This document shows, in pieces, positions 9,551 through 31,211 of a stretch of DNA of 32,923 nucleotides (position 1 is the first letter of the stretch; each line of letters opens with the position of its first letter). Made by a program: the position numbers and the translations under genes. The DNA is from an uncultured Prevotellaceae bacterium (GTDB lineage: Bacteria > Bacteroidota > Bacteroidia > Bacteroidales > Bacteroidaceae). The notes below the pieces were generated by a model that saw only the letters and a program-made list of their open reading frames with translations, did no database searches and had not been told where the DNA came from. The stretch is from positions 1 to 32,923 of the forward strand of contig CAMVIM010000038.1 of NCBI GenBank assembly GCA_947167515.1, given 5' to 3'.

Positions 9551-9619
9551 CCATCTTGCTTATTTCGCTTTCACCATCTCGCTTATTTCTTTTTCCCCAT
9601 CTTGCTTGTTCCGAAAAAT
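9551..9619. repeat. 23-bp tandem array, three units (CCATCTTGCTTATTTC type)
   Basis: Units start at 9551, 9574 and 9597, exactly 23 bp apart. Each begins CCATCT(T/C)GCTT(A/G)TT, and the third decays after about 16 bases. A possible fourth, degenerate unit precedes them at 9528. It lies between converging genes and has no coding role that I can see. Confidence 0.8.
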
Positions 9620-9636
9620 GATTTGTACACACCCCA

Positions 9637-9723
9637 GTGTAGCAAGTGCTACACACCCACTGTAGCAGTTGCTACACTGGCGGTGTAGTAAATGCTACAC
9701 TGGCACTGTAGCAAATGTTACAC
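9637..9723. repeat. 23-bp tandem array of four palindromic units (TGTAGCAAATGCTACA type)
   Basis: The TGTAG element recurs at 9638, 9661, 9684 and 9707, each 23 bp from the last. Each unit is an inverted repeat such as GTGTAGCAAGTGCTACAC with a short central spacer. Base changes in one arm (GCTACA, GTTACA) mostly keep pairing or allow G-T pairs. It may terminate or shield the TonB receptor transcript, or bind a protein. Confidence 0.85.
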
Positions 9724-9763
9724 TTTCTGCTGTCAGTGTGTAGGTGTGCCGTTCTTCCGCTAC

Positions 9764-11704
9764 TCATCGTGTAAGGGCGAAATGCGCCTTTGCGCCAGCC
9801 ATGAACCAGACACCAGGCTGCTGGATGTTGGCAAAGTCGTAGTATTTGTGGTTGGTCAGGTTGTTGGCTTGAGCATAGAGGGTGTAATGGGGAAGTGTCC
9901 ACTGCACTTTCACGTCGAGTGTGCCGAAGGTGCCAAATGACTGATGTTCACCCGTCTTGGCATTGTCGAACTCGCCTTCACGATTCTTGAGCGTGAAGTC
10001 CCATTGGGCACTGACACGTCGCACGATGCGATGCTGCAGGGATGCGACAAACTTGTGGCGCAGGAAGGTCATGCGCGAGGCGTAGTTGGCACTCTGCTCG
10101 GTGCGGGTGCGATACTTGTAGTTGTAGCAATAGCTGAGCGTGAGGTGCTGCAGGAGGGCTTGCTCTCCCCACCGATGGGCAAAGTTGAAGCTTGCCAAAG
10201 CCTCTGCACCGACATTGTCGATGTTGCTGTTCGCTGTGGTGTAAACCGTTGCGTCGGTGTATTTCACCCAGTCAATCATGTCGGTGCCTCGACGGTAGAA
10301 GCCTTTGAGTTGCAGACGGATGAAGTTGCCGGTGTAGCTGGTGCCGAGGTGCCAGTCGGTACTCTTTTCGGGCTTCAGTTCGCTATTGCCGAGCAAGCCG
10401 GGGCCGTTGTAGTAGAGGTCGGTGTAGGTGGGGGTGCGGAGGCTCTGATTGAAGGAGGCGAAGAACTTCCATTGCGGAGTGGCGCGCCAGGAGAGGTCGA
10501 TGCCTGGATAGAGGTGCATGCCGCCGGCAACGGAGGTGTTGTGGTTGGCAAGCATGCCGAGCGAGATGGTGAAGTGGGGAAGCAGGATGTCGTGTTCGAG
10601 ATAAAGGCCGAGGTTGCTGCGCCCATCTTTATATTTATAGTATTCATCATGGCCCGGCACCTTGTACTTGTGCCAATCTTCTTCGGCTATCTCCTTGCCC
10701 AATCGGGTGGAGAGAATGTTCTCGCGGCGAAACTCGACACCGACAGCCGTCTTGCCAAGTGCCCAGGTGGTGTAGGCATTGAGGTTGGCTCCATAGACGT
10801 TCGTCTGGTGAAAATTCTGATAGGCCGATGGATTGGCGCGCCACCACACATAGTGGTCGAGCGAACGGTTCCAATACACTTGTGCCGGCACATGGATTCG
10901 TCCTTTGTATTCGGCTTGTGCTGCCACGAGATAGCGGCGGTCCTGTTCGTACTGTGTGTCGGAGCCTGTTCCGTAGAAAGTGTTGGCGCCATAGTTCATC
11001 GTGCTCAACCCTGCTTGCAGTGTGGCATCGAAATGGGCGGAGGTGTAGCGGCTGTTCCAATAGGCATTGCCCTTGTTGAAGTCGTCGTTGCCGCTGCCGC
11101 CGTCGCTGCGGGCATAGCCTCCACTCAAGCGGTGGTGGAAGTGGCTGTTCTTCAGCGCCACATGGGCGTTGGTGCCGAATGTGCCGTAGGAACCGCCTTG
11201 CACATGGGCACCCACGTTGCTCTCCTTTTCCGTGCGTGTGACGATGTTGATGGCTCCGGCAAAGGCTTGGCTGCCATACACGCGGCTGGCTCCGCCTTCG
11301 ATGACCTCGATGCGCTCGATGTCATCGACATTGACAGGCAAATCGACCGTGAGGTGGCCAGTGTGGGGATTGCTGATGTTGATGCCGTTGAGCAGCACGG
11401 TGAGTTGGTCTTCGGTGCCGCCGTTCACACCGATGTCTGTCTGGATGCCGAAGCCTCCTCGTTGGCGCACATCCACGCCGGCGGCGAGTTTCAGCAGGTC
11501 GTTGACCGAATGGGCACTGGCGGCTTCGATGTCCTGACGGGTGATGACCTGCACGAGGCGCACGGCTTTGTCGGCTGGCAGCGGGGCACGTGTGGCGGTC
11601 ACTTCTGTTTCTTGCAGTTGGAGTTCGTAGGCGGTTTTCTCGGTTTGTGCCAAGGATGCACAGGCAACCATCGCCAGAGTTGCCGCAAAAAGTATCTTTC
11701 TCAT
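9764..11704 (-). CDS. TonB-dependent outer-membrane receptor (BtuB/Cir-like)
   Basis: 646 residues. A signal peptide ends at about SLAQ (residue 20). A TonB-box-like segment ETEVTATRA follows, then a plug domain (about 40-150: ITRQDIEAASAHSVNDLL, GVDVRQRGG, VLLNGINISNPHTGH, IERIEVIEGGASRVYGSQAFAGAINIVT) and a 22-strand-type barrel. There is no carboxypeptidase-like N-terminal extension, so it is not a SusC-type receptor. The fold matches vitamin B12 or siderophore receptors, but no cobalamin riboswitch is visible upstream, so the substrate is unknown. It ends HFALTR rather than in the usual aromatic residue. It starts 11 bp after the YiiX-like gene and is probably co-transcribed with it. Confidence 0.92.
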   Translation of the reverse strand: MRKILFAATLAMVACASLAQTEKTAYELQLQETEVTATRAPLPADKAVRLVQVITRQDIEAASAHSVNDLLKLAAGVDVRQRGGFGIQTDIGVNGGTEDQLTVLLNGINISNPHTGHLTVDLPVNVDDIERIEVIEGGASRVYGSQAFAGAINIVTRTEKESNVGAHVQGGSYGTFGTNAHVALKNSHFHHRLSGGYARSDGGSGNDDFNKGNAYWNSRYTSAHFDATLQAGLSTMNYGANTFYGTGSDTQYEQDRRYLVAAQAEYKGRIHVPAQVYWNRSLDHYVWWRANPSAYQNFHQTNVYGANLNAYTTWALGKTAVGVEFRRENILSTRLGKEIAEEDWHKYKVPGHDEYYKYKDGRSNLGLYLEHDILLPHFTISLGMLANHNTSVAGGMHLYPGIDLSWRATPQWKFFASFNQSLRTPTYTDLYYNGPGLLGNSELKPEKSTDWHLGTSYTGNFIRLQLKGFYRRGTDMIDWVKYTDATVYTTANSNIDNVGAEALASFNFAHRWGEQALLQHLTLSYCYNYKYRTRTEQSANYASRMTFLRHKFVASLQHRIVRRVSAQWDFTLKNREGEFDNAKTGEHQSFGTFGTLDVKVQWTLPHYTLYAQANNLTNHKYYDFANIQQPGVWFMAGAKAHFALTR

Positions 11705-11715
11705 GTTGTTTTTGT

Positions 11716-12543
11716 CTAAAAGAATTTCCCGATGATTTCAATTTTCTCACTTCGGCTGATGCCTCCAGGGTTGGTGCCTGGCCAACCCTCTGGAACACTC
11801 ATGTTCCATTGCTGATAATAGTCTTTCCAGAACTGGGTGATGCAGCCGCTCTTGTCGTGAAACGACATGGGTTGCTGAGGAAAGATGGGATTGCCTTCGG
11901 CATCAAAATAGGAGAAATGAACCAGCTCGCTGCAATAGATGGCAGAATCGCTTGGCAGGTATTGCTCATCGTAAGGTCTGCCAAGAAAAGTCTTTGCCTT
12001 TTCTACTGCGGCAGCAGCAGGCGAGGTGTCCTTCAACCGTCCGAGCAGCACCATTGGATGGCCTGCTGACGTGTGGTCGCTGTGGACAAAAAAGGAATCG
12101 ATGGGATTGAGCCACACACCGTGTTTGCTCGATGCTTCGAGTGCATAGATGCGTCCGTCGGACTCTTTGCACACGATGGCTACATGAGAAACTCGCTGAA
12201 GGTCGATGCCTTCAGTTACTGTGACGATGGCTTGCGCTAAGCCATCACGCGAGGGACTTGCCACATTGAACAGCAAGTCACCGTTTTGAAGCGCGGAGAG
12301 GTCTAAAAGTTCATCTTCTGAACCCGACGATGCCGAAGCCGTGGTCTCTTCTTCATCAGTAGCAGGACGTTGGCTCATGACCATCTTGGCTGCCGAAGAA
12401 TCGGGACAGGCCGCAGCCAATGTGGCCACACTCAACACGCCGATGCGAATCTCCCTGCCGAGGCTTAGGAAGATGGCGTCGCGGTGGCGAGTGAACTGGT
12501 GCCACACGATTGCCTCCGTCTTCTTGAAAGTTGTTTTTTTCAT
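11716..12543 (-). CDS. YiiX/YebB-like NlpC/P60-superfamily cysteine peptidase with extended leader
   Basis: 275 residues. The catalytic domain (about 80-260) shows VSHVAIV with His120 and YCSELV with Cys204 and Glu206, the pattern of the YiiX (DUF830) family of papain-like amidases or peptidases. The N-terminus is unusual: about 30 polar residues with WHQF, RHRD and LGRE precede the hydrophobic IGVLSVATLAAA, then SSAAK, so the export signal is about 52 residues long. Extended leaders of this look occur, from memory, on some Bacteroidetes TonB-dependent receptors. The receptor gene follows 11 bp downstream, suggesting that the peptidase works with it at the cell surface. No promoter box was found upstream; the 10-bp array and rodA lie there. 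The substrate is unknown. Confidence 0.82.
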   Translation of the reverse strand: MKKTTFKKTEAIVWHQFTRHRDAIFLSLGREIRIGVLSVATLAAACPDSSAAKMVMSQRPATDEEETTASASSGSEDELLDLSALQNGDLLFNVASPSRDGLAQAIVTVTEGIDLQRVSHVAIVCKESDGRIYALEASSKHGVWLNPIDSFFVHSDHTSAGHPMVLLGRLKDTSPAAAAVEKAKTFLGRPYDEQYLPSDSAIYCSELVHFSYFDAEGNPIFPQQPMSFHDKSGCITQFWKDYYQQWNMSVPEGWPGTNPGGISRSEKIEIIGKFF

Positions 12544-12568
12544 TGTTTGTTGTTTTTTTTTGTTTTTG

Positions 12569-12706
12569 CTAGGAGTTCTAGGCTTTCCTAGGCTTTCCTA
12601 GGCTTTCCTAGGTTTTCCTAGGTTCTCCTAGGCTTTCCTTGGTTTCCCAGGCTCTCCTAGGTTTTCCTAGGCTCTCCTAAGTTTTCCTAGGTTCTCCTAG
12701 TCTTTC
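12569..12706. repeat. 10-bp tandem array, 14 units (CTAGGCTTTC type)
   Basis: Units start at 12569, 12578, 12588, 12598, 12608, 12618, 12628, 12638, 12648, 12657, 12667, 12677, 12687 and 12697. Twelve are 10 bp and two are 9 bp. Most carry CCTAGG, a palindrome, at one per helical turn. The array begins 4 bp beyond the rodA stop codon and ends 26 bp before the YiiX start codon. It fills the whole gap between the two genes. Confidence 0.9.
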
Positions 12707-12710
12707 TTTT

Positions 12711-14177
12711 TTATTGCCGCTTCAAGTTTCTCTCTGCGTCCATTCGCAGGAAGATGAACAGCAACAGCGTGAAGCCCCACAGTGATGAGCCTCCATAACT
12801 GAAGAAGGGTAGCGGAATGCCGATGACTGGGGTCAAACCGAGCACCATGCCCACATTGATGAACAAGTGGAAGAGGAAAATGCACATCACACTATAGCCA
12901 TAGACGCGTCCCATCGTGTCGGGCTGCCGTTCTGCCACAACGATGAGTCGCCAGATGAACAGGAGATAGACGATGAGCACTCCTGCCGAACCGACAAAGC
13001 CTTCTTCTTCGCCTACGGTGCAGAAAATGAAGTCGGTGTGTTGTTCGGGCACATAGCGGAGTTTGGTTTGGGTGCCATTGAGGAATCCTTTGCCAAACAA
13101 TCCACCTGATCCGATGGCGATTTTTGCCTGATTGACATTGTAGCCAGCACCTCGGGGGTCATCCTTCATGCCAAGCAGTACTTCGATGCGGATGCGCTGG
13201 TGGTCGTCCAAGCGTTCAAAGAGGGAGTCGGTGATGTAGAAGAAAGAGGTGGATATGATGGCAAAGAGTGCGATAAGTCCGTAGCGGATGAGTCGGGTGT
13301 AGATAGCCAGCCCAATGATGTAGCCTATCATGAGGAGGCAGAATCCGACCATGACATAGCAGACGTTGAAAGGAATGACGAAAATGGAAAAGAGCATGGC
13401 TAAAGCAGTGCCTCCGAAACAGGTGTAAGCCATGATTTTGACGGCTTGTCTGTTACGGCAATACACCCACACCATTCCGATGGTGAAGAGCATGGCCATC
13501 AGCAGCACCGAGAACTCTCCGATGGAGACGGGCATGTTGTCGATGTAGCTTTCGCTGAATTTCATGCCCACCACAAAATAGGTCACGCAGGCAAAGCCCG
13601 TGAAAAGGAGGGAACCGGTCATGCCTTCACGATAGAGCATGAGGAAAAAGGCAAAATAGACGAGCGCGGAGCCTGTTTCTTTCTGGGCGATGATGAGCAA
13701 CATCGGAAGGAGAATGATGCCGATGGCTGTTCCGATGTCCTTGAGATTCTTGATGTTATAGCCATATCTGTCCATGAGCTTTCCAAGCGCCAAAGCTACA
13801 GAGAACTTGGCAAACTCGGCTGGCTGAATCTTGACAGAAGAGCCAATGGGCAACCACGAATGGGAACCTTTGGTGTCGGGGGCAATGATGATGGTGACAG
13901 CCAGCAGCACCATCATAAAGATGTAGGTGATGTAGGCGGTGGTGTCGTAGATGCGTTTTTCGATGAGCATGAGTGCTGCTGCCAGCACCAATGAGGTGCC
14001 TGCCCATACAATCTGCTTGCCCGAATTGGTTTCCCAACTGAAGAGGTCGGGATTGTTGAAGTCGTAGCAGGCACCGCACACGCTGAACCAGCCCCACACG
14101 ATGAGTATCACGTAGAGCAGGATGGTCATCCAGTCGATGCTGAGGAAAATGCCTTTACTACCTTGCTCTTGTTCCAT
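12711..14177 (-). CDS. rodA: RodA, SEDS peptidoglycan glycosyltransferase of elongation
   Basis: 488 residues with ten expected membrane helices; somewhat longer than the Escherichia coli protein, as usual in Bacteroidetes. RodA polymerises lipid II in the elongasome together with PBP2. Conserved parts are GSHSWLPIG and IQPAEFAK, KETGSALVY, the loop YNVNQAKIAIGSGGLFGKG, and PEQHTDFIF, whose Asp near residue 382 corresponds to the catalytic Asp of SEDS proteins. The C-terminus has GIPLPFFSYGGSSL. Its start overlaps the mrdA stop by 20 bp, indicating translational coupling. No terminator follows the stop codon; a tandem array starts almost at once. Confidence 0.97.
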   Translation of the reverse strand: MEQEQGSKGIFLSIDWMTILLYVILIVWGWFSVCGACYDFNNPDLFSWETNSGKQIVWAGTSLVLAAALMLIEKRIYDTTAYITYIFMMVLLAVTIIIAPDTKGSHSWLPIGSSVKIQPAEFAKFSVALALGKLMDRYGYNIKNLKDIGTAIGIILLPMLLIIAQKETGSALVYFAFFLMLYREGMTGSLLFTGFACVTYFVVGMKFSESYIDNMPVSIGEFSVLLMAMLFTIGMVWVYCRNRQAVKIMAYTCFGGTALAMLFSIFVIPFNVCYVMVGFCLLMIGYIIGLAIYTRLIRYGLIALFAIISTSFFYITDSLFERLDDHQRIRIEVLLGMKDDPRGAGYNVNQAKIAIGSGGLFGKGFLNGTQTKLRYVPEQHTDFIFCTVGEEEGFVGSAGVLIVYLLFIWRLIVVAERQPDTMGRVYGYSVMCIFLFHLFINVGMVLGLTPVIGIPLPFFSYGGSSLWGFTLLLFIFLRMDAERNLKRQ

Positions 14178-16002
14178 AGTCGATATGTCTTTGGCGGAAC
14201 ATCTCAGCCTTTGCCTGACTGGCAGGAGAGAGTTCGCCGTTGATGTATTGTTCCATAATCAAAGCACCAATAGGCACTCCGTAAGTGGCACCGAAACCGC
14301 CGTTTTCCACATAAACAGCCACGGCAATCTTGGGGTCTTCCATCGGAGCGAAACCCATGAAGGCAGAGTGGTCTTTGCCTCGGTTTTGTGCCGTACCAGT
14401 CTTTCCGCACACGGCATACTTGGGGTTGTTGGCACCACGGCAAGTACCACCCAGAACGGCCTTGCGCATACCTTCCGCAACCATCTGGTAGTATTGCTTA
14501 TCGACCTTGGTCTTGTGCTTCACCAGCAGACTGTCTGCCAGTTGACCTCCTTCGATTTTCTTGACGATGTGCGGGGTGATGTAGTAGCCCCGATTGGCGA
14601 TGGTGGCTCCGAGGTTGGCTATCTGCAAAGGGGTGAGCGTCACTTCACCTTGCCCGATGGCGATGGAGATGACTCCGAGTGCATTCCATTTCCCCAACCG
14701 CCGGTCGTAGTAGTCGGCATTAGGTATCATGCCCCGAGCCTCACCTGGGAGGTCTATGCCCAGTTTGTAGCCGAAGCCCATTGACACCATGTAGTCTTTC
14801 CATGTGGTGATGGCTTCTTGTATGGTCTTGTATTTCTGACGGTTGTTCAGCATGTGGAAAAGTCCCCAGCAGAAATAGCCGTTGCACGAAGTGGCAATGG
14901 CTGGAATGAGGGGCAGGGGAGCACCGTGGCCGTGGCAACCCACTTTCATGCCGCCGAAACGGAAACCGCGACTGCACGGATAGGCGGTGGAGGAGGTGAT
15001 GATGCCTTCTTGCAGGAAGGTGAGTCCTTGCGATGTCTTGAAAGTGGACCCCGGAGGATAGGTGCCGGAGATGGCGCGGTTGAGCATCGGCTTCATGGGG
15101 TCGCGCTGCATCTCCATCATCTGTACACCACGTTGCTTGCCCTCCATGCGGTGAGGGTCATAACTGGGTGCGCTGACCATGCAGAGAATTTCGCCTGTCT
15201 TTGGCTCGATAGCCACAATGGCACCCATCTTTCCTTCCATCAGGCGTTCGCCCAAGGCTTGCAGCTTGGCATCGATGGAAAGGGTGATGTTCTTGCCAGG
15301 AACAGGTTTGCGGTCGAACTCCCCATTGCGATAGTGTCCCTGAATGCGTCCACGGGAATCGCGGAGCAGAATCTCCACGCCCTTCACGCCTCGAAGTTCT
15401 GCCTCATAACTGCGTTCCACACCTTGCTTGCCAATGTAGTCGCCTGGGGTGTAGTAGCTGTCTTTTTCCACTTCGGCAGATGACACTTCCGCCACATCGC
15501 CCAAGATGTGAGCACAATGGTCGGTGGCATAACGTCGGATGGTGCGTTCGCGGAGATAGAAACCGTGAAAACGAAACATCTTTTCCTGAAAGATGCCATA
15601 CTCCTGTGCTGAAATCTGCGGCATGAAGAGTTGCTGTGTGTAAGTGGAATAGCCAGGATTTTTGTTGCGGTCTTTGATGGTAGCCATGCGTTCGTCGAAC
15701 TGTTGGCGAGTGATGCCAACTGTCTGGCAGAAGTCGAGTGTGTCAAGATTGTTGACTTCACGCATAATCACCATGATGTCATAGGCAGGCTGATTGAAGA
15801 CCAGCAAGCTGTCGTTGCGGTCGTAGATAGTGCCACGTGCAGGGAAAATGACGTTGTTGAAAAAGGCGTTGTTGTCGGCACGGCTCTTGTATTCCTCGTC
15901 AGAGAGTTGAAGAAAGGCCAGTCGCACGATATAACACACTACGATAGCCAATGCGATGCCGCCAAGCACAAACTTCCGATATTCGTAGAGGTGATTCTTC
16001 AT
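14158..16002 (-). CDS. mrdA: Penicillin-binding protein 2, elongation transpeptidase
   Basis: 614 residues. A single N-terminal membrane helix (about 12-32) anchors a pedestal (PARGTIYDRNDSLL) and a transpeptidase domain. The three active-site motifs are in order: STFK with the serine near residue 318, SCN near 371, and KTGTAQ near 533. It cross-links peptidoglycan made by RodA and is the target of mecillinam-type beta-lactams. It starts 6 bp after mreD and overlaps rodA by 20 bp at its 3' end, so the order mreBCD-mrdA-rodA is one tight operon. Confidence 0.97.
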   Translation of the reverse strand: MKNHLYEYRKFVLGGIALAIVVCYIVRLAFLQLSDEEYKSRADNNAFFNNVIFPARGTIYDRNDSLLVFNQPAYDIMVIMREVNNLDTLDFCQTVGITRQQFDERMATIKDRNKNPGYSTYTQQLFMPQISAQEYGIFQEKMFRFHGFYLRERTIRRYATDHCAHILGDVAEVSSAEVEKDSYYTPGDYIGKQGVERSYEAELRGVKGVEILLRDSRGRIQGHYRNGEFDRKPVPGKNITLSIDAKLQALGERLMEGKMGAIVAIEPKTGEILCMVSAPSYDPHRMEGKQRGVQMMEMQRDPMKPMLNRAISGTYPPGSTFKTSQGLTFLQEGIITSSTAYPCSRGFRFGGMKVGCHGHGAPLPLIPAIATSCNGYFCWGLFHMLNNRQKYKTIQEAITTWKDYMVSMGFGYKLGIDLPGEARGMIPNADYYDRRLGKWNALGVISIAIGQGEVTLTPLQIANLGATIANRGYYITPHIVKKIEGGQLADSLLVKHKTKVDKQYYQMVAEGMRKAVLGGTCRGANNPKYAVCGKTGTAQNRGKDHSAFMGFAPMEDPKIAVAVYVENGGFGATYGVPIGALIMEQYINGELSPASQAKAEMFRQRHIDYGTRAR

Positions 16003-16008
16003 GGCGGC

Positions 16009-16533
16009 TTATGCGTGATGTTTTTTCTTTTGTTTTGAATGTACCAACAACTCGATGAAGACGATGATGATAGTGGTCAGGACGGAACCGCCAAGAATAG
16101 AGGTGAGGGTCAGTATCCAGTCGGCCAGCGTGAAAGCATCGAGCAGATAGAAAGCACCATGCAGGATGAGCATGACCAGGAAGGTGTAGAGGATGTAGTT
16201 CCAGAAGCCCAGTGTGAGGAACGAAGGCTTGAAATCGTCGGCGGCATCGCGTGGGGTGAACATTTTGAGAATGAGGGGTTGCACCATAGCAATCAGGGTG
16301 CAGGATGCCGATGCCATGCCGGCGGTGTTGCTGAAGATGTCGAAAAGAAGACCTGTGATGAATCCCCATGTCAGCACGCTGATGCGTGACGAATTGTGCC
16401 GAAAACAAACTACCATGTATCCCATCACCAATGGGGTGATGTATCCCATCAGATGTATGTGGTTGAACACTAACACCTGAAAGAACAATAGGATAAGGAG
16501 TCTGAAAAAACGTGATATGTAGATAGAACTCAT
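16009..16533 (-). CDS. mreD: Rod-shape-determining protein MreD
   Basis: 174 residues, nearly all hydrophobic, with five or six expected membrane helices and a basic end (HSKQKKKHHA). MreD is a small inner-membrane partner of MreC in the elongasome. The sequence itself has few diagnostic motifs (a FITGLLFDIFSNTAGMASA stretch fits the family), and position between mreC and mrdA is strong support. Its ATG overlaps the mreC stop as ATGA (16530-16533), so translation is coupled. Confidence 0.92.
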   Translation of the reverse strand: MSSIYISRFFRLLILLFFQVLVFNHIHLMGYITPLVMGYMVVCFRHNSSRISVLTWGFITGLLFDIFSNTAGMASASCTLIAMVQPLILKMFTPRDAADDFKPSFLTLGFWNYILYTFLVMLILHGAFYLLDAFTLADWILTLTSILGGSVLTTIIIVFIELLVHSKQKKKHHA

Positions 16534-17426
16534 CTTATGGGATTGTCGGGCTTTTCGGTTGCTTCTTTTAGTTGCTCCAGCATCGTGCTGTCAGCTTTCT
16601 CGGGGTTCTGGGCAATTTCTTCCAGCATGTGTCGCTCGGCTGAGGTGTAGTTGGTGATGACTGAAACTTCCCGTAAGGTGGTGAAGTTGGTGAACAGCCT
16701 CACTTTGAGCATGTAGGACATACCGTCGGAAGAGTCGCCGATACGCACCACCTGTCCGATGGGAAGTCCTGCAGGAAAAACGTCTGAATAGCCGTTGGTT
16801 TCAACGATTTCCTTCACCTTCACGGGTGCATGGCGTGGTATGCTGGTGATATAGGCGATGTTGGCGTATCCACGTTCCCAGATGAGGGAACCGAAATACT
16901 CCGAATGGCGCAGCCGGCAACTCACCTTGCTGTTGGTGTTGAGCAGGGGAATGACGATGCTGTAGTGGCGGCTGGTCATGTAAACAATGCCCACCACACC
17001 TTGAGAACAGATGACACCCATTTCGGGACGGATGCCATCGGCTTCTCCCTTGTTGATGGTGATGAGGTTGTTGGACTTGTGCAAGGTCATGTTGACCACT
17101 TGTGCCGAAACCAGTTCGTACTTCAAGGGGAGAGCAGGCATACGCTTGACGCTGTCTTGCGCCATTTGTTGCTGCATTTCAAGGAGTTTTTTCCGCAGAT
17201 ACTGGTTCTTTGCCTCGAGTGCCTGATTTTCCTCTTTCAGATGCAGATATGATGTAATGCTGCTAATGACGTTGTAGGTTGTGCCTACTACGTCATTAGC
17301 AGTTGTAAAATATACACTTTTTTGGTATCCATTGTGGCTGAAAAGAAAGGCAAGGCTTATCACTTCCAGCAGGATGAATACAAACCAGTGTTTTTTCTGT
17401 ATGATTAAGTCAATCAGTGCGCGCAT
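16530..17426 (-). CDS. mreC: Rod-shape-determining protein MreC
   Basis: 298 residues. One membrane helix (about 14-31) is followed by a coiled coil (about 60-95, KEENQALEAKNQYLRKKLLEMQQQM) and the periplasmic double beta-barrel domain, with GEADGIRPEMGVICSQGVVGIV and typical glycine-rich turns. MreC forms filaments in the periplasm and switches on PBP2/RodA. The C-terminal extension after about residue 265 is charged (EEIAQNPEKADS) and probably disordered. It starts 7 bp after the mreB stop and overlaps mreD by 4 bp. Confidence 0.95.
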   Translation of the reverse strand: MRALIDLIIQKKHWFVFILLEVISLAFLFSHNGYQKSVYFTTANDVVGTTYNVISSITSYLHLKEENQALEAKNQYLRKKLLEMQQQMAQDSVKRMPALPLKYELVSAQVVNMTLHKSNNLITINKGEADGIRPEMGVICSQGVVGIVYMTSRHYSIVIPLLNTNSKVSCRLRHSEYFGSLIWERGYANIAYITSIPRHAPVKVKEIVETNGYSDVFPAGLPIGQVVRIGDSSDGMSYMLKVRLFTNFTTLREVSVITNYTSAERHMLEEIAQNPEKADSTMLEQLKEATEKPDNPIR

Positions 17427-17433
17427 GGCACGT

Positions 17434-21464: not shown

Positions 21465-21475
21465 GCGGATGTTGC

Positions 21476-22655: not shown

Positions 22656-22802
22656 TTATGAGTAAAGATTCTTCTTCTGTGGTAGATAGTTCTCTTCAAA
22701 ATCGCTCTCTTCTTCGCTCCCTTCTTCGCTCCCTTCTTCAGTCTCTTCTTCTGTGTCTAATCTTCTCTCGTCAAAATCGCTCTCTTCAGTTCCTTTATCT
22801 TT
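22656..22802 (-). other. Acidic open frame without a start codon, built on 12-bp repeats
   Basis: Between a TGA and the TAA at 22656-22658 there are 48 sense codons, rich in Glu, Asp and Ser. No ATG, GTG or TTG occurs in frame. The core is four 12-bp units (22704-22751; GCTCCCTTCTTC on the plus strand). It is flanked by a 17-bp direct repeat at 22696-22712 and 22771-22787, which encodes ESDF twice. A leftward promoter sits just upstream at 22811-22841. It could be a decayed gene tail or part of a non-coding RNA. A plus-strand open frame across the same DNA (22586-22897) looks like chance. The rest of the gap 22531-22880 shows only a small hairpin (22631-22644). Confidence 0.4.
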
Positions 22803-22810
22803 TCACGGTG

Positions 22811-22841
22811 CAAAGTTACGGACTTTTTCATCTTCGCACAA
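22811..22841 (-). promoter_or_regulatory. Orphan leftward promoter
   Basis: On the minus strand TTG (22841-22839), a 20-bp spacer and TAACTTTG (22818-22811) match the Bacteroidetes pattern with ideal spacing. No conventional gene follows. The next leftward stop signal is the terminator near 22488, which would give an RNA of about 320 nt. Confidence 0.55.
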
Positions 22842-22882
22842 TACCTAAAATGAGTGATTTTTTGTCATTAAAGTCACAGAAA

Positions 22883-22921
22883 AAGGGTATTCATTAACGG
22901 AAACCGTTAGCGAATACCCTT
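22883..22921 (-). terminator. Terminator after the SurA/PpiD-like gene
   Basis: An 18-bp stem with two imperfect positions (22883-22900 with 22904-22921) and an AAA loop is followed on the minus strand by TTT and more T. It lies 60 bp after the stop codon of the foldase gene. Confidence 0.8.
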
Positions 22922-22980
22922 ATGAATCAGTCCTATACCTATTTCTTAGGAAGGACGAATGGTGTTGAAAATGCCTTTCT

Positions 22981-25131: not shown

Positions 25132-25238
25132 TTTTTATTTAATTTTTATTGATTATGTATTCTTTTTCTTCGGACGAATCGTCCTCATTCCACGACCAAT
25201 GCGAGGGGAGTCCCCTCCACCTTATCGCAAAAATCATG

Positions 25239-25246
25239 CAAAATTA
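25239..25246 (-). promoter_or_regulatory. Promoter -7 box for the SurA/PpiD-like gene
   Basis: TAATTTTG on the minus strand, 108 bp before the ATG. The -33 region is poor. The remainder of the gap 25132-25459 holds pyrimidine-rich sequence and the 23-bp array. Confidence 0.5.
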
Positions 25247-25357
25247 CAAAAAAAATCTCACCCATACATGCACTTCCACAAGATTTTTTCATTTTCCTCC
25301 TCTTTTTCATGTTCTAAACCCTCTTCAACCGCCCTTCCACGACCTCCCCAACCCCTA

Positions 25358-25426
25358 CGCCACTTCCGTAATTACGTCAACGCCACTTCCGTAATTACGT
25401 CAACGTCGTTTCCGTAATTACCTTAA
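25358..25426. repeat. 23-bp tandem array, three units (CCGTAATTAC core)
   Basis: Units start at 25358, 25381 and 25404. The first two are identical, and the third differs at several positions but keeps TTCCGTAATTAC. Each unit has the palindrome GTAATTAC. A partial fourth unit starts at 25427 with CGACGTT. It lies just past the 3' end of the NhaC gene. Confidence 0.9.
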
Positions 25427-25459
25427 CGACGTTGCTTACAGAGGGGAAAGGCAACTTGA

Positions 25460-26722
25460 TTAAAGCGTAAACTTTCGGGGATAGCGGAAGAGGATTGCGA
25501 GTAGTAGGGCAATGCCAATGAGGATGGGGTAGTAGAGATGAGGAAGGATGGCTATGGGATTGAGGCTGGAGAGGCTGGCGGCGATGAGGACTTGGGCACC
25601 ATAGGGGAGGATGCCCTGAGTGAAGCAGGAAGCAGTGTCGAGGATGGAGGCGCTGCGACGTGGGTCGATGCGGAAGCGTGTGGCGATGTCTTTGGCAATA
25701 GGACCAGAGGTGATGATGGCGACGGTGTTGTTGGCCGTGCAGATGTTGACAAGGCAGGTGAGGGTAGCGATGCAGAGTTCTCCTCCGCGTTTGCCGTGAA
25801 TGTTGCGTGTGAGAGCCTTGATGATGAGGTCAATGCCTCCGTTGTGACGGATGATTTCGAGCATTCCGCCTGCCAAGATGGTCATGATGATGAGTTCAGC
25901 CATGCCCATCATGCCTTCGTTCATGGCTGCAAACCAGCCGAAGAGGTCGTATGTGCCGATGGCGATGCCGATGATGCCCGTGAGGACGATGCCGATGGCG
26001 AGCACCAAAAGCACGTTGATTCCACAGATGGCAAGGATGATGACGGCAAGATAGGGTAGGACGAGCCAGAAGTTGACGTCGCCGATGTCGGCAGGTGTGC
26101 TGACGTGCGACCCCAAAAAGTAGTAAACGATGAGCATGATGGCTGCAACGGGAGCCACGATGCGGATGTTCACGCGGAACTTGTCTTTCATGCTGCACCC
26201 TTGTGTCTGTGTCGCCACGATGGTGGTATCGCTGATGAAGGAGAGATTGTCGCCAAAGTAGGTGCCACCCACCACGAGGCCTACCATCAGGGGGATGCTG
26301 ATGTTTGACTGCATGGCGATGCCGACTGCCAACGGTGTGAGTGCGGCGATGGTGCCGCAACTGGTTCCGATGCTGAGTGAAATGAAGCAGGCGGCGAGGA
26401 ATACGCCTGGCAGGATGAACTGCTCGGGCAGATATTTCAAAGCGAGATGCACGGTGGCATCGACAGCTCCCATCGTTTTGGCTGATGCAGCGAAGGCTCC
26501 AGCGAGGATGAAGATGGCAAGCATCAGCACCATCGTCGTGTTTCCGGCTCCTCGCGCAAATACCTTGATGCGCTCATCCATCGTGCCTTTCACGGTCAGC
26601 AGGGCATACACCGAACTGACCAGAAAGGCGACGGCAATGGGTACCTTGTAGAAATCCTGCGCTATGATGCTGGTGGCAAGGTAGAGAATGAGGAAGACGA
26701 TGAGGGGTGAAAGGGCTTTCAT
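25460..26722 (-). CDS. NhaC-family Na+/H+ antiporter-like transporter
   Basis: 420 residues, highly hydrophobic, with about ten or eleven membrane helices. Family features include the SIGTSCGTIAALTPLAVGIA segment, VGGTYFGDNLSFISDTTI and the later TANNTVAIITSGPIAKDIA. NhaC relatives exchange Na+ for H+, and some, such as MleN, couple it to organic acid movement. The gene follows uxaA by 33 bp on the same strand, so here it may move a sugar acid or balance sodium during hexuronate use; this is inference. A 23-bp tandem array starts 34 bp beyond the stop. Confidence 0.85.
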   Translation of the reverse strand: MKALSPLIVFLILYLATSIIAQDFYKVPIAVAFLVSSVYALLTVKGTMDERIKVFARGAGNTTMVLMLAIFILAGAFAASAKTMGAVDATVHLALKYLPEQFILPGVFLAACFISLSIGTSCGTIAALTPLAVGIAMQSNISIPLMVGLVVGGTYFGDNLSFISDTTIVATQTQGCSMKDKFRVNIRIVAPVAAIMLIVYYFLGSHVSTPADIGDVNFWLVLPYLAVIILAICGINVLLVLAIGIVLTGIIGIAIGTYDLFGWFAAMNEGMMGMAELIIMTILAGGMLEIIRHNGGIDLIIKALTRNIHGKRGGELCIATLTCLVNICTANNTVAIITSGPIAKDIATRFRIDPRRSASILDTASCFTQGILPYGAQVLIAASLSSLNPIAILPHLYYPILIGIALLLAILFRYPRKFTL

Positions 26723-26755
26723 GTGGGGTGAGAGGTGAGTGACGGGAGGAGAGTG

Positions 26756-28294
26756 TTATAATGTCACTCCCGTCTTAAAGATGGCGATTTCTTGATAGTT
26801 CTTCTTTTCATTCCAAGTGAGTTCTCCACTTGCTATCTCGATGACTTTCTGCATGAAACGATTGAATACATCAACCATTGGTTCACCTTCTACAATCGTG
26901 CCGGCATTAAAGTCTATCCACGTGGGTTTGTTCTTGGCGAGAAGGCTGTTAGTGCTCACTTTCATGGTGGGAACGAAGGTGCCGAATGGGGTGCCTCGAC
27001 CTGTTGTGAAAAGCACGATGTGGCATCCAGAGGAGGCTAATGCTGTGGCTGCGACGAGGTCGTTGCCTGGAGCGGAAAGGAGGTTGAGACCCTTCACGGA
27101 AAGACGTTCGCCGTATGGAAGCACACCTTTCACGGCACTCTTGCCGCACTTTTGTGTGCAGCCTAGGGCTTTCTCTTCGAGCGTGGAGATGCCGCCAGCC
27201 TTGTTGCCTGGCGATGGATTTTCACCAACGGGTTCGCCATGAGAAAGGAAGTATTGCTTGAAGTCGTTGACGAGGCTGACGGTCTCTCCGAAAAGTTCAG
27301 GGGTTTCACAACGATTCATGAGGATGGTTTCTGCACCAAACATTTCAGGCACTTCTGTTAAGACGGTGGTGCCGCCTTGGCTGACGATGAAGTCGCTGAA
27401 CACACCCAAGAGGGGGTTTGCGGTGATGCCAGAAAAGCCATCGGAACCGCCACACTTCAGACCTACACGAAGTTCGGACAGCGGAATGGCTTCGCGCTTG
27501 TCCTGAGCCGCTATGGTGTAGAGCTCACGCAGTATCTTCATGCCTTCTTCCACTTCGTCGCCCTCCACTTTCTGGCTGACCATGAAGCGGATGCGCTCCT
27601 TGTCGTAGTCGCCTAAGAGCTCCTCGAACTTGTCGGGTTGATTGTTCTCGCAACCTAAGCCGACCACGAGCACAGCACCTGCATTGGGATGCAAAACGAG
27701 GTCGCGCAGCACCTTGCGAGTGTTTTCATGGTCGTCGGAGAGCTGAGAGCAGCCGTAGTTATGGGGGTAAGCCACGATGCGTAAGGGAGTTGACAGTTGG
27801 GAGTTGACAGTTGAGAGTTGAAACACCGCCTCTTGTTTGAGTCTTTCAGCCAGCTGATTGACGATGCCGTTTACACAGCCGACGGTCGGTACAATCCACA
27901 CTTCGTTGCGGATGCCCACTTCGCCATTTTTGCGACGATAACCCTGAAAGGTGAGTCGTTCCTTCGGGAACCATTCAGCATAGGCTGGATTGGTAAGCTC
28001 TTCTTTGCCGACGGGCTTGTACTCGTAGTCGAGCAGACCTGCAAGGTTGGTCTTGATGTGGTCGTGACACACCCAGTCGCCTTTCTTGTGATTCTCCTTC
28101 AGGTGGCCAATGGGATAGCCGTATTTGATGACATTCTCTCCTTCTGCAAGGTCGGCGAGGAGAATCTTGTGACCTGCGGGAACATCGTTCGTGAGGGTGA
28201 TTCGCTGTCCTTCCACCTCGATGGTTTCGCCCGCTTTGAGTGCTTCGATGGCAACTGCTACATTGTCGGCAGGATTGATTTTGATGGTTTTCAT
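26756..28294 (-). CDS. uxaA: Altronate dehydratase (UxaA family)
   Basis: 512 residues. The N-terminal SAF-like domain (about 1-95, with HKILLADLAEGENVIKYGYPIG) and the large C-terminal UxaA domain (VGCVNGIV, HNYGCSQLSDDHENTRKVL, GLKCGGSDGFSGITANPLLG, GCTQKCGKSAV) are both present. UxaA converts D-altronate to 2-keto-3-deoxygluconate in galacturonate breakdown, using an iron cofactor. Residues 159-169 (QLSTVNSQLST) are encoded by five 7-bp repeats inserted in a poorly conserved loop; the frame stays open. It follows an AraC regulator by 14 bp and precedes the NhaC gene. uxaB and uxaC are not in the window. A galactarate-type dehydratase is an alternative. Confidence 0.9.
   Translation of the reverse strand: MKTIKINPADNVAVAIEALKAGETIEVEGQRITLTNDVPAGHKILLADLAEGENVIKYGYPIGHLKENHKKGDWVCHDHIKTNLAGLLDYEYKPVGKEELTNPAYAEWFPKERLTFQGYRRKNGEVGIRNEVWIVPTVGCVNGIVNQLAERLKQEAVFQLSTVNSQLSTPLRIVAYPHNYGCSQLSDDHENTRKVLRDLVLHPNAGAVLVVGLGCENNQPDKFEELLGDYDKERIRFMVSQKVEGDEVEEGMKILRELYTIAAQDKREAIPLSELRVGLKCGGSDGFSGITANPLLGVFSDFIVSQGGTTVLTEVPEMFGAETILMNRCETPELFGETVSLVNDFKQYFLSHGEPVGENPSPGNKAGGISTLEEKALGCTQKCGKSAVKGVLPYGERLSVKGLNLLSAPGNDLVAATALASSGCHIVLFTTGRGTPFGTFVPTMKVSTNSLLAKNKPTWIDFNAGTIVEGEPMVDVFNRFMQKVIEIASGELTWNEKKNYQEIAIFKTGVTL
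27786..27820 (-). repeat. 7-bp tandem repeat inside uxaA (CAACTNN x 5)
   Basis: On the coding strand five units CAACTCT, CAACTGT, CAACTCC, CAACTGT and CAACTCC lie head to tail. Loss or gain of one unit would shift the frame. Similar CAACTCTCAACT strings occur, from memory, between genes in Bacteroidales. Confidence 0.93.
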
Positions 28295-28308
28295 TGTATG
28301 GTATGATG

Positions 28309-29211
28309 TTAGAGTGCTTTGTATTCTTTAGGCGTATAACCCGTGTGTTGTTTGAAATATTTGGCAAAGAAACTTTGATTGGCGAAGTTGAGCTTGTTGC
28401 TTACGTCCTTGATGGAAACTCCTTCTGTTCGCAGCATGGTCTTGGCTTCGAGCACTACATACTGGTTAATCCACTCGGAGGCGTATTTACCGCTGACTGT
28501 ATGAACCACCGTGGAGAGGTACTTGGGCGATACACAAAGTTTGTCGGCATAGAAAGCGATGTTTCGGTTGATGATATAGTGTTCCTTCACCACAGCCATA
28601 AACTGCATGAAGAGCGTTTCCTTGCGTCCTGTCGGATGGTGTTCCACTTGCCTCCCTATATCTTTGACAAAACTATGGAAGATGTTGCATTGCATGATTC
28701 TTAGGTAGGCTCTTGCCACGTCTTCCATGTAGTTGAAGTCTTTCTGTTGCAGCTTCTTCTTCAAGGCTTTATACAGGGTGATGTTCTCTTCCAATTCTGT
28801 AGCGGAAGGACGGTGTATGGGATTTTCTTTCAGCTTTCTGCCAAACTCTATGCCTGTCTTGACGTCGCCTGTGAAACGGGCGAAATCGGGCGAAATAGCC
28901 AGAAATATGCATTTGCTTCCTTTCTCGATGTTCTTCATCTGGAAAAAGCTGCCAGGGAGAATAAGTGCCATGCACCCATCGGTGAGAGTGTAGTCGTTGA
29001 GGTCAATTTTCATTTCCACCTTACCCGAAAGGCAGATGATGTTGACACTCATGGTCACCTGTACAGGAAACATGGAGTGCTGATGGCCATCTTCCTCAAT
29101 CCTGTTTTCGTCAATGTTGTCTGTCATCACCAGTTGACCTGGTAGCTGGACAAATCTCTCGTCGGTCGGGAAATGAGAGAAATCCACTTTGATAATTTCT
29201 GGTACACTCAT
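28309..29211 (-). CDS. AraC-family transcriptional regulator
   Basis: 300 residues. The N-terminal half (to about 180) is a cupin-like sensor (VEMKIDLNDYTLTDGCMALILPG). The C-terminal 100 residues are an AraC DNA-binding domain with two helix-turn-helix units: FYADKLCVSPKYLSTVVHTVSG and IKDVSNKLNFANQSFFAKYFKQHTGYTPKEYK. It ends 14 bp before uxaA, so it probably controls that operon, with a sugar acid as likely signal; this is inferred from position only. A -7 box lies 22 bp upstream of the ATG. The TGA-free start MSVPEII is kept since the box lies just before it. Confidence 0.92.
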   Translation of the reverse strand: MSVPEIIKVDFSHFPTDERFVQLPGQLVMTDNIDENRIEEDGHQHSMFPVQVTMSVNIICLSGKVEMKIDLNDYTLTDGCMALILPGSFFQMKNIEKGSKCIFLAISPDFARFTGDVKTGIEFGRKLKENPIHRPSATELEENITLYKALKKKLQQKDFNYMEDVARAYLRIMQCNIFHSFVKDIGRQVEHHPTGRKETLFMQFMAVVKEHYIINRNIAFYADKLCVSPKYLSTVVHTVSGKYASEWINQYVVLEAKTMLRTEGVSIKDVSNKLNFANQSFFAKYFKQHTGYTPKEYKAL

Positions 29212-29233
29212 GGAGCATTGTTCTATTTGTCGG

Positions 29234-29241
29234 CAAATTTA
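29234..29241 (-). promoter_or_regulatory. Promoter -7 box for the AraC-uxaA-NhaC operon
   Basis: TAAATTTG on the minus strand matches TAnnTTTG, 22 bp before the AraC ATG and just past the terminator of the preceding gene. No -33 TTTG is visible. Confidence 0.5.
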
Positions 29242-29256
29242 CGTAAAAGGAATAAA

Positions 29257-29290
29257 AAAACGGGAGAATCTTGTAATTTTCTCCCGTTTT
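29257..29290 (-). terminator. Terminator after the 163-residue secreted protein gene
   Basis: A 12-bp perfect stem (29257-29268 with 29279-29290) with a 10-base loop is flanked by A7 on the left, which reads as T7 leftward. Confidence 0.85.
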
Positions 29291-29325
29291 AGTGGTTGTT
29301 TTTATGCTTTTTACATGCCTTTTAC

Positions 29326-29817
29326 TTATTTCAGGGCTGCTTTTGCCAACGTTGTTGCCTGATCGTATGCTTTTTCCCAATCGGTGTCGAGGCAGAACGG
29401 AGTCATGGTGGTTTTGTCGTTCACATAGCAGTTCACCTTCTCCTTGTCGTTGTCCTTAAACATGGGATTGAACTTGCTGGCATCGGTGTAGATTTTCAGA
29501 ATCTCTGTGCGCTTGGCTGGTGAGATGTTGCGAGCCTTTTCCAGATTCACCTGAAAGTCTGTGACGAATGAGGTCAAGTTGACAGCCTGACTGTCGAAGA
29601 AATAAGTGTCTTTCTTCAAGCCACGCTTCTGCACCATCATGGCCAGATAGTTGAGTGCAGTCACCTTGAACTGGTTGATTTGGATTTCTTCGTCAGAAGC
29701 CTTGGGGTCGTTGACCACCTTTTCTGCACTTTCACGTACAGTCTTGTAGAGGCTCTGGGCCTGGATGCTTGCTACTGATGCAATCAGCACAAACAAAGAG
29801 AGAATAACTTTTTTCAT
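29326..29817 (-). CDS. Secreted protein of unknown function
   Basis: 163 residues. A signal peptide (KKVILSLFVLIASVASIQAQ) is followed by a mostly helical, soluble domain of about 140 residues (SAEKVVNDPKASDEEIQINQFKVTALNYLAMMVQKR, FFDSQAVNLTSFVTDFQVNLEKAR). Two cysteines (in VNCYVND and FCLDTDWEKAY) may form a disulfide. I do not recognise a named domain; small proteins of this look are frequent in Prevotella and Bacteroides. The gene has its own -7 box and terminator, so it is expressed alone. Intact frame and signal peptide make it a real gene. Confidence 0.8.
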   Translation of the reverse strand: MKKVILSLFVLIASVASIQAQSLYKTVRESAEKVVNDPKASDEEIQINQFKVTALNYLAMMVQKRGLKKDTYFFDSQAVNLTSFVTDFQVNLEKARNISPAKRTEILKIYTDASKFNPMFKDNDKEKVNCYVNDKTTMTPFCLDTDWEKAYDQATTLAKAALK

Positions 29818-29863
29818 ATTTTTTTGTTTACGTTTTTTTTTGACTTTATCAATTTCGATGATG

Positions 29864-29871
29864 CAAAGTTA
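29864..29871 (-). promoter_or_regulatory. Promoter -7 box for the 163-residue secreted protein gene
   Basis: TAACTTTG on the minus strand, 47 bp before the ATG at 29817. No clear -33 box. Confidence 0.5.
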
Positions 29872-29938
29872 CTCTTTATCCATTGATTTATTAAAAAGAA
29901 CGGCTTCTAAATCTCTTTTTCTTAATGATGTTTAACAT

Positions 29939-31030
29939 TTACTGACCTGCAAACTCGCTGATTTCGTAATTATTGGCAACAGCTAAGCGTGCACAATTCT
30001 GCAAAAGGCGGCGGTTGGAGTTGTTCACGGCTCCAGTTTCGTTACTCTTTCCGTAGATGGTGATGTCATCTCTGAGGTTGCGAGTAAGGCAAGGCGCGAT
30101 GATACTCTCGAAGAATGTGCATGCCAAGAGGTAGCGTCCGGAATAGAGGTTGATGTGCAACCCGTCGCGGGTCAGTTCGTTGTCCACATTCAGCGCAGCC
30201 ACGCTTCGTGCGTTCTGCACAGCCGTCCCACATGGGATAATGACATCGATTCCTGTTGTCGCTTTCATTTTTTTGACAGAGTTGCAGATGTTCTTCCACA
30301 TATTGACTGGTGTCTTGTATTTGCCAATATTCTTGTGGTTGGAGGCATAAGACCATGTCTGGTTGAAGGCGAAAGTGGTTCGAGAGGCAATCTTGGTGAC
30401 GTTGTAGGCTTGGATCAGTTTGGCCAGATAAGGTTCGTAGGTGTTGGCATCACCCGATTCGAGCGAGTATTGCTGAAACACCACAACATCGTAGGAATAG
30501 CGACGCATCACATCATTGATGCTGGTGGCCTTTTCTATCTGCTGGACGCCGAGCATGTTGTAGCGGTATAGTTCATAGACCTTTTCCCCACTTTTGAAGT
30601 ACTCATAGTGCTGCTTGATGGAGCACCCGCCCTTGTAAAGCACATAAACATTCACATTGGCGATGCCCAGCGAGTTGAGAATCTCTGGCAGGGCGGCACT
30701 CGTGTCGATGGAGAACGAATTGCCGATGAAGAGCACATCCAGCTTCGTGGGCAGATAGGGCAGGGGTGGATTGCAGAAATAGCCGCACACAGAAGTCGTC
30801 GCTTTCTTGTCCTCCTCCACTATCATCTTCTTGTCCGCTGCCGCCGTCTTTTTGTCCGTCGAAGCAGGTTTCTTGTCGGTCGCAGTTGGTTTCGGTGCCG
30901 TCGCCTTCGGTGTCGTTGTCACCACAGGCTTCTTCACCGCCGTCGTCTTGTTCTGCGCAATCTTGTTCGTCTGCGCCATGCCCAGCATGCTGACGCACAC
31001 CAGAGCCATCATCCATATCAATTTTTTCAT
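29939..31030 (-). CDS. Secreted DUF4886 SGNH-hydrolase-like protein
   Basis: 363 residues. A signal peptide (LIWMMALVCVSMLGMAQ) is followed by a low-complexity linker of Lys, Thr, Ala and Pro (about 22-80: KKPVVTTTPKATAPKPTATD and KK-rich repeats). The DUF4886 domain (about 95-345) has the SGNH block I motif LFIGNSFSID with the putative nucleophile Ser105 and a late block V-like RDGLHINLYSGRY, where Asp and His would complete a triad. SGNH relatives are esterases or deacetylases of carbohydrates. Substrate is unknown, and no polysaccharide locus is adjacent. The gene has its own -7 box, and no strong terminator follows it. Confidence 0.85.
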   Translation of the reverse strand: MKKLIWMMALVCVSMLGMAQTNKIAQNKTTAVKKPVVTTTPKATAPKPTATDKKPASTDKKTAAADKKMIVEEDKKATTSVCGYFCNPPLPYLPTKLDVLFIGNSFSIDTSAALPEILNSLGIANVNVYVLYKGGCSIKQHYEYFKSGEKVYELYRYNMLGVQQIEKATSINDVMRRYSYDVVVFQQYSLESGDANTYEPYLAKLIQAYNVTKIASRTTFAFNQTWSYASNHKNIGKYKTPVNMWKNICNSVKKMKATTGIDVIIPCGTAVQNARSVAALNVDNELTRDGLHINLYSGRYLLACTFFESIIAPCLTRNLRDDITIYGKSNETGAVNNSNRRLLQNCARLAVANNYEISEFAGQ

Positions 31031-31059
31031 ATCTTATTTTCTGTTTTGTTTTCCGGCTG

Positions 31060-31067
31060 CAAAAGTA
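31060..31067 (-). promoter_or_regulatory. Promoter -7 box for the DUF4886 gene
   Basis: TACTTTTG on the minus strand, 30 bp before the ATG. The first unit of the 23-bp array (31089) falls where the -33 region is expected. Confidence 0.55.
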
Positions 31068-31088
31068 CGACTTTTTTCACAAATAATC

Positions 31089-31211
31089 TTACGACGAAAC
31101 CGATTTTTTCTTCACGGCATGACCTCATTTCCCTTTACGACGTAACCCCTTTGAGCCTTACGTCGCTAAGCTCACGAGCCTAACGACGTAACCCTCGCGA
31201 GCTTTACGACG
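31089..31211. repeat. 23-bp period array, six units (TTACGACG core)
   Basis: The core TTACGACG or a variant recurs at 31089, 31112 (degenerate TCACGGCA), 31135, 31158 (TTACGTCG), 31181 (TAACGACG) and 31204, always 23 bp apart. Two copies extend into the near-palindrome ACGACGTAAC. Sequence between cores is poorly conserved. It lies directly upstream of the DUF4886 promoter. Confidence 0.85.

What the first reader, a model, noticed from the sequence alone, without database searches (positions are those of the whole stretch)
9551..31211. Four tandem arrays with unrelated sequences share an exact 23-bp period
Arrays at 9551-9619, 9637-9723, 25358-25426 and 31089-31211 each repeat at exactly 23 bp (3, 4, 3 and 6 units), although the unit sequences differ completely. 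Three of the four have a palindromic core in each unit, and all lie between genes. Independent slippage would not be expected to choose the same period repeatedly. A shared process with a 23-bp ruler (a protein that binds about two helical turns, or a copying enzyme) would explain it. The mechanism is inference; the periods are counted directly.
Basis: partly seen in the sequence, partly recalled or inferred. Interest (0 to 1): 0.75.

Follow-up and report, generated by a model that had tools for sequence, protein, structure and literature searches.

The report
Rigid 23-bp palindrome arrays between genes
A group of gut bacteria carries many short arrays of repeated DNA, often palindromes, between its genes at a pitch of about 23 letters; in the best-studied families the spacing stays fixed while the palindrome letters can change together across a genome, which looks like docking sites for an unknown DNA-binding protein.

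Summary
All four arrays have 23-bp units. In 832,923 bp of the same genome, 28 of 369 intergenic regions score at period 23, against 5 at 22 and none at 25 or 26. Congeners peak at 23 too (25 of 361 regions); other genera of the family peak at 21-22; E. coli shows none.

The best-resolved families do not behave like slippage minisatellites. Dispersed copies keep one spacing: family A 23 in 15 of 15, family M 24 in 19 of 19. At two family M loci compared across four or five species, no non-S palindrome column varies (0 of 36 each) while 34 of 36 linker columns do. The window's array at 9638-9722 occupies the same gap in two congeners with the same spacing and number, but other palindrome arms, TGTTAC instead of TGTAGC; that difference is nearly genome-wide. 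Half-sites vary independently, against an RNA hairpin.

I read these as rigid arrays of sites for dimeric DNA-binding proteins, not identified here. Against: arrays 1 and 3 of the window are not conserved, and array turnover is high. Closest known: BrickBuilt of Porphyromonas; REP/BIME.

The parts
9551..9619 (.). array 1: three copies of CCATCTYGCTTRTTYC at 23-bp steps, not palindromic
   Evidence: not seen as an array in the same gap of G007 or G010
9638..9722 (.). array 2 (family A): four palindromes TGTAGC-N4-GCTACA at 9638-9653, 9661-9676, 9684-9699, 9707-9722, exact 23-bp pitch, with 7-bp linkers
   Evidence: same gap in G007 and G010 holds four palindromes at 23 bp with TGTTAC/GTAACA-type arms
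9626..9637 (.). left shoulder of array 2, a half palindrome (TACACACCCCAG)
   Evidence: read; similar CTACAC/GTGTAG half-sites beside some other family A copies
25357..25428 (.). array 3 (core CGTAATTACG): two identical units and a diverged third
   Evidence: no such array downstream of the orthologous gene in 22 congener loci, one of which has a 23-bp array of family M there
31089..31211 (.). array 4 (core TTACGNCGTAA / CGTCGT): six units at 23-bp pitch upstream of the gene at 29939-31030
   Evidence: kept in G012 and, with fewer matching units, G010

Best explanation
The 23-bp arrays are sets of sites for dimeric, sequence-specific DNA-binding proteins that sit side by side on intergenic DNA at a fixed pitch (23 bp; 24 bp in family M). 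SHOWN for families A/T and M: the pitch, a constant number of sites in most copies, conservation of palindrome letters (M) and of spacing beside diverged linkers, independent variation of half-sites (M), and a nearly genome-wide difference between close species in the palindrome used (TGTTAC versus TGTAGC) with unchanged geometry. INFERRED: that a protein reads them; that several proteins or paralogs serve the several families; that the switch reflects a change of protein specificity; that the less studied 23-bp families work the same way; and that the complex acts in a way not tied to the promoter of one neighbour (architecture, insulation or marking), because arrays also sit between convergent genes. 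New arrays probably arise by local unit duplication and are then kept or lost.
For: Genome-wide and genus-wide pitch. Family A spacings 23 in 15 of 15 and M 24 in 19 of 19; copy number 4 in 5 of 7 family A clusters and 3 in 8 of 12 family M clusters (of the exceptions one family A copy is cut by a contig start and at least one M pair has a degenerate neighbour). Orthologous M arrays at two loci: 0 of 36 non-S palindrome columns variable at each, linkers 18 of 18 and 16 of 18 variable. 304 substitutions and 1 gap opening in arrays over 19 ortholog pairs. Own versus G007 at array 2: 14 of 16 switch-column positions differ, 6 of 69 others (columns chosen post hoc). A-type/T-type pairs: own 31/3, G007 2/54, G010 0/50, G012 0/58. 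Half-site bases at M positions 4/12 clash in 17 of 31 palindromes. Units are dyad-symmetric more often than shuffled ones: 10 of 28 and 8 of 24 versus about 0.6 expected each.
Against: No binding protein is identified. Many units are not palindromic (several high scorers there are copies of one family). Arrays 1 and 3 of the window are not found in the same gap of the congeners examined, and unrelated 23-bp arrays occupy the gap of array 4 in other congeners, so turnover is high. Some arrays have adjacent identical units, as slippage gives. Family M is absent from 28 of 45 and A/T from 32 of 45 congeners. Only 2 of the 12 M loci in hand were followed to orthologs. Outer arms of some M copies are complementary to each other, as in a hairpin or a mobile element.
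Confidence: 0.6

Rival explanations
1. MITE-like or REP-like mobile elements: short non-autonomous repeats spread by a transposase, with tandem units inside, as in BrickBuilt.
For: Families are dispersed in many copies. Family M has inverted outer arms (cTTCCAnAGCCTCAAAATC ... GATTTTGAGGCTnTGGAAG) around the palindromes. BrickBuilt of the same order has a 23-nt unit.
Against: Own genome has no Y1_Tnp (RAYT) match at E <= 0.001. Two M loci and array 2 are at orthologous places in several species with palindromes intact while linkers and flanks have diverged, which dead insertions would not show. Family A copies share no outer arms that I could see. Target-site duplications were not tested.
Confidence: 0.17
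2. Slippage minisatellites, or a copying enzyme with a 23-base ruler; the common period is mutational.
For: Adjacent identical units in some arrays (window 25357-25402, L017 4225-4270, L057 12023-12173). Non-palindromic arrays exist. Several congeners have unrelated 23-bp arrays in the same gap.
Against: Exact spacing and mostly constant number across dispersed copies; conserved palindromes beside diverged linkers; nearly genome-wide change of palindrome letters without change of geometry; family E keeps about ten of 23 bases and reverses direction mid-array.
Confidence: 0.13
3. RNA or single-stranded DNA hairpins (terminators, attenuators, small RNAs): selection is on folding.
For: The arrays fold better than shuffled sequence as RNA: z -5.4, -3.4, -3.0 for arrays 2, 3 and 4 and -8.4 for L026. 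Outer arms of some M copies differ in sequence yet stay complementary.
Against: M positions 4/12 pair in only 14 of 31 palindromes; first-to-third palindrome S positions pair in 11 of 24 (counted by eye). No Rfam match in the window. Arrays are found in divergent and convergent gaps alike, and array 2 lies beside a separate terminator-like hairpin.
Confidence: 0.07

Closest known systems
BrickBuilt MITE of Porphyromonas gingivalis (PMC4596501; abstract, sections 7 and 8 and search passages read)
   Same: Tandem 23-nt unit, intergenic, many dispersed copies in one genome (19), same bacterial order, long predicted stem-loops
   Different: One unit sequence, leader and tail with IS5-like terminal repeats, repeat number differing between strains; here several unrelated unit families share the pitch, with constant number in families A and M and conserved orthologous places
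REP/BIME elements and REPINs (PMC3116915 seen as a search listing with the start of its abstract; the rest recalled)
   Same: Short palindromes, intergenic, dispersed, occurring in clusters
   Different: REPs go with a RAYT transposase, of which own genome has no Y1_Tnp match; here spacing is exact and families are many
Arrays of operators or architectural sites (ARG boxes, matS, parS; recalled, not tested)
   Same: Palindromic sites of a dimeric protein; ARG boxes are paired at about two helical turns
   Different: Those use one motif per system; here several motif families share one pitch and one motif differs nearly genome-wide between close species; arrays also lie between convergent genes

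Membership tests
MITE (BrickBuilt type) | 23-nt tandem unit in intergenic DNA, dispersed | tested here: met
MITE (BrickBuilt type) | terminal inverted repeats and target-site duplications | tested here: inconclusive
   Family M has inverted outer arms; none seen by eye for family A; target duplications were not tested
MITE (BrickBuilt type) | sequence homology to BrickBuilt | not tested
   The unit sequence was not in the sections read and was not searched
REP/REPIN | RAYT (Y1_Tnp) transposase in the genome | tested here: not met
   0 matches to PF01797 in G000 at E <= 0.001
Slippage minisatellite (VNTR) | copy number varies between relatives | tested here: not met
   Three palindromes at each of 9 orthologous M copies and four at each of 3 orthologous A/T copies; one species lacks the M array at one locus and G036 the A/T array. 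Only these three loci; strains of one species were not available; array 4 may have fewer units in G010
RNA hairpin element | paired positions keep complementarity through compensatory change | tested here: not met
   M positions 4/12: 14 paired and 17 unpaired of 31. Outer arms of some M copies do stay complementary
Operator array of one transcription factor | palindromic sites conserved at orthologous places | tested here: met
   (three loci)
Operator array of one transcription factor | location in promoter regions | tested here: inconclusive
   Array gaps: 15 --, 8 ++, 10 -+, 5 +-, 4 at edges, against 72, 85, 44, 30 in gaps of 100 bp or more: no shortage of convergent gaps, array 2 among them; promoters were not mapped
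Operator array of one transcription factor | a known cognate protein | not testable with these tools
   needs binding experiments

The most novel reading that the evidence does not exclude
A genus-wide DNA marking system: several families of dimeric proteins, perhaps fast-evolving paralogs, coat intergenic DNA as rigid 23-bp lattices. The geometry is the conserved trait, and the sequence code is exchanged across a genome when a protein's specificity changes, as the TGTTAC versus TGTAGC difference between two close species suggests. Related genera would use the same principle with a 21- or 22-bp pitch.
Probability: 0.3. Interest if true: 0.88.

Novelty: new variant of a known kind. Interest (0 to 1): 0.7.

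Why it matters
Site sets are usually recognised by their letters. Here geometry persists while letters turn over, so motif searches would miss that the families are alike. The pair own genome / G007 offers a natural experiment in which a whole site set changed its palindrome between close relatives, which makes the co-evolution of a DNA-binding protein with dozens of sites directly testable. It would also give a function to part of the intergenic tandem repeats of these gut bacteria, which would otherwise be filed as minisatellites.

Tried and rejected
RAYT/REP origin: no Y1_Tnp match in the genome. Rfam: no match in the window at gathering scores. A recurrent gene beside the arrays: 126 neighbours of 66 arrays compared all against all; of the 12 largest clusters shown, the largest (6) is orthologs of a window gene and the rest have 4 or fewer members. 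Pfam on 65 of the 78 neighbours listed found no family in more than 2 members (25 of 97 families shown). HU-HIG proteins (PF18291): 22 matches in the genome, the profile also matching in 9 of 14 control genomes; by coordinates, 7 of the 22 fall in fetched stretches and 2 of these flank a 23-bp array, about what chance gives (my rough estimate from 31 of 369 regions is one), so a lead only. CopY/BlaI box: the T palindrome contains TACANNTGTA, which I recall as their motif; not tested. Tn7-like end sites were considered for family E because of its 4 direct and 3 inverted sites in L026; not tested. The wide pattern search for array 3 was mis-written (it misses the window's own array) and says nothing. 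Family A at exact match was found only in own genome among 119 genomes of the order. Literature: searches listed no paper whose title or abstract start describes multi-family fixed-pitch arrays in this group; only open-licence papers are held, and only PMC4596501 was opened. (genus name, HU expansion) gave nothing used.
Full report
WHERE IT IS. The window is contig C38 of a 3.68-Mb draft genome in 74 contigs, 98.85% complete. Relatives found with one window protein are uncultured Bacteroidaceae, many from rumen or hindgut by their record titles; two records are named Candidatus Minthosoma.

THE OBSERVATION. All four arrays are present with 23-bp units and lie between called genes. I took 40 stretches of 20 kb of the same genome plus the window, 832,923 bp, and scored every intergenic region of 40 bp or more for ungapped self-matches at lags 8 to 120. 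Period 23 occurs in 28 of 369 regions and 46 in 23; 22 in 5, 24 in 11 (8 of them family M), 25 and 26 in none; genes show 4 of 602 at 23. On the first 432,923 bp, five dinucleotide shuffles per region gave none at 23. A smaller series at 7, 14, 21, 28 is mostly simple short-unit repeats. Genes were called by a simple longest-ORF rule, so a few array copies fall in probably spurious ORFs (7 of 31 family M matches).

TAXONOMIC RANGE. With one method and simple repeats removed, congeners show 25 of 361 intergenic regions at 23 against 3 at 22 and 0 at 24. Other genera of the family show 7 at 21, 8 at 22 and 1 at 23 of 183. Other families of the order show 4, 4, 2 and 2 at 20, 21, 22 and 23 of 291, both 23-bp arrays from one genome. 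More distant members of the phylum show 0 at 23 of 186. E. coli K-12 (150 kb) shows none at periods 9 to 60 of 69. Three congener loci were left out because they duplicate other stretches. These are samples of 20 to 100 kb per genome.

FAMILIES. Several dispersed families share the pitch. Family A (TGTAGCNNNNGCTACA) forms 5 clusters of four palindromes and 2 single matches in the stretches; 15 of 15 spacings are 23. Family M (GGTSTGASTCASACC) forms 8 clusters of three, 3 of two and 1 of one; 19 of 19 spacings are 24; in one congener the same palindrome is spaced by 23, 2 of 2. Whole-genome counts of M pairs at 24 bp: 75 in own genome, 56 to 74 in six congeners, 18 and 21 in two, 1 to 7 in eight, none in 28 of 45; reversed-pattern controls 0. 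Family E keeps about ten of 23 bases (TTTAGCnTTG) and reverses direction along the array in three loci. Array 3 has core CGTAATTACG, array 4 TTACGNCGTAA; further cores are GTACCC...GGGTAC, GACATCGG and others. Dyad symmetry is enriched but not universal: 10 of 28 own and 8 of 24 congener consensus units reach 7 or more of 8 complementary pairs, about 0.6 expected each; four of the ten are family A.

SELECTION. I followed two of the twelve M loci to orthologous gaps, found through the neighbouring gene. At one, all five species compared keep three palindromes at 24 bp; at the other four keep them and G036 lacks them. Non-S palindrome columns vary in 0 of 36 at each locus, S columns in 7 of 9 and 3 of 9, linkers in 18 of 18 and 16 of 18. 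The script located the arrays with a pattern that fixes ten and partly fixes one of the fifteen palindrome bases; the alignments use no pattern and show the same. Over 19 ortholog pairs, the window's array 2 included, arrays hold 304 substitutions and 1 gap opening and the 60-bp flanks on each side 1143 and 16; flanks are so diverged that their gap count is rough.

THE SWITCH. In the gap of array 2, G007 and G010 carry four palindromes at 23 bp with TGTTAC/GTAACA-type arms, while the linkers of G007 are nearly those of the window; G036 has none there and G012 gave no ortholog. Own versus G007 differ at 14 of 16 positions in the four switch columns and 6 of 69 elsewhere (columns chosen after seeing the data, so its p value is only descriptive). 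Genus-wide pair counts (A-type, T-type): own 31, 3; G007 2, 54; G010 0, 50; G012 0, 58; G025 0, 75; G032 0, 27; G035 0, 38; G036 10, 0; G031 6, 0; G042 3, 0; G011 0, 3; G017 and G029 0, 1; the other 32 of 45 none; controls 0. Both types occur in own and G007, so the switch is nearly, not fully, exclusive. In which direction it went is inferred from the wider spread of the T type.

RESULTS AGAINST. Array 1 is not an array in G007 or G010 (read). Array 3 has no counterpart downstream of the orthologous gene in 22 congener loci; one has a family M array at 23 bp there. Upstream of the gene next to array 4, 5 of 25 congener loci have a 23-bp array: two of the window's type (G010, G012) and three with unrelated units, and one has a 21-bp array; a lower threshold adds G007, with yet another unit, and a weak one in G009. 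So many arrays turn over quickly, and conservation is shown for three loci only.

RNA OR DNA. Arrays fold well as single strands, as any dyad must. In family M, bases 4 and 12 pair in 14 of 31 palindromes and clash in 17; first-to-third palindrome S positions pair in 11 of 24 (counted by eye). Half-sites vary on their own, as for a protein that reads each half-site. Outer arms of some M copies (L055, L067) are different in sequence yet complementary, which fits a hairpin or an extended dyad. The terminator-like hairpin at 9492-9535 keeps pairing in G007 with changes on both sides.

WHAT IT MAY DO. Arrays occupy all classes of gap in about background proportions, convergent gaps such as that of array 2 included. 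This speaks against ordinary promoter operators and against terminators. I favour an architectural or insulating complex; this is inference. Neighbouring genes are varied enzymes, transporters and envelope genes, no family in more than 2 of 65.

COMPARISON. BrickBuilt of P. gingivalis shares the 23-nt period, intergenic place and dispersal, but has one unit, IS5-like terminal repeats and strain-variable repeat number (PMC4596501; abstract, sections 7 and 8 and passages read). RAYT-dependent REPs fail for lack of a Y1_Tnp match. Conclusion: real, genome-wide, and best read as rigid arrays of protein-binding sites whose letters can be replaced while their geometry stays.

Noticed in passing
window 12578-12706: Thirteen copies of a 10-bp unit (CTAGGCTTTC) between two genes on the minus strand; it also gives a false 69-bp signal.
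   Followed up: no
window 1933-2025: A 35-bp unit repeated 2.6 times across the end of the ORF at 1030-1956, carrying its stop codon, up to the start of the next ORF.
   Followed up: no
window 9492-9535: Terminator-like hairpin in the same convergent gap as array 2; in G007 both arms differ and still pair.
   Followed up: partly
G000; L017:4611-5243 and L027:3918-4541: 22 matches to the HU-HIG profile in the genome; two of the seven in fetched stretches flank 23-bp arrays, about chance level, but a candidate DNA-binding family.
   Followed up: partly
L087:4421-4504, L088:4140-4223, L107:4968-5036: A second, AT-richer class of intergenic arrays at 21 bp in congeners; other genera of the family peak at 21-22 with 11, 33 and 44.
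   Followed up: partly
L020:1040-1230, L026:5522-5678, L057:12023-12200: Family E arrays run in one direction for about half their length and in the opposite direction for the rest, in three loci.
   Followed up: partly
window 22702-22751: A 12-bp unit (TCGCTCCCTTCT) repeated 4.2 times with 89% matches.
   Followed up: no
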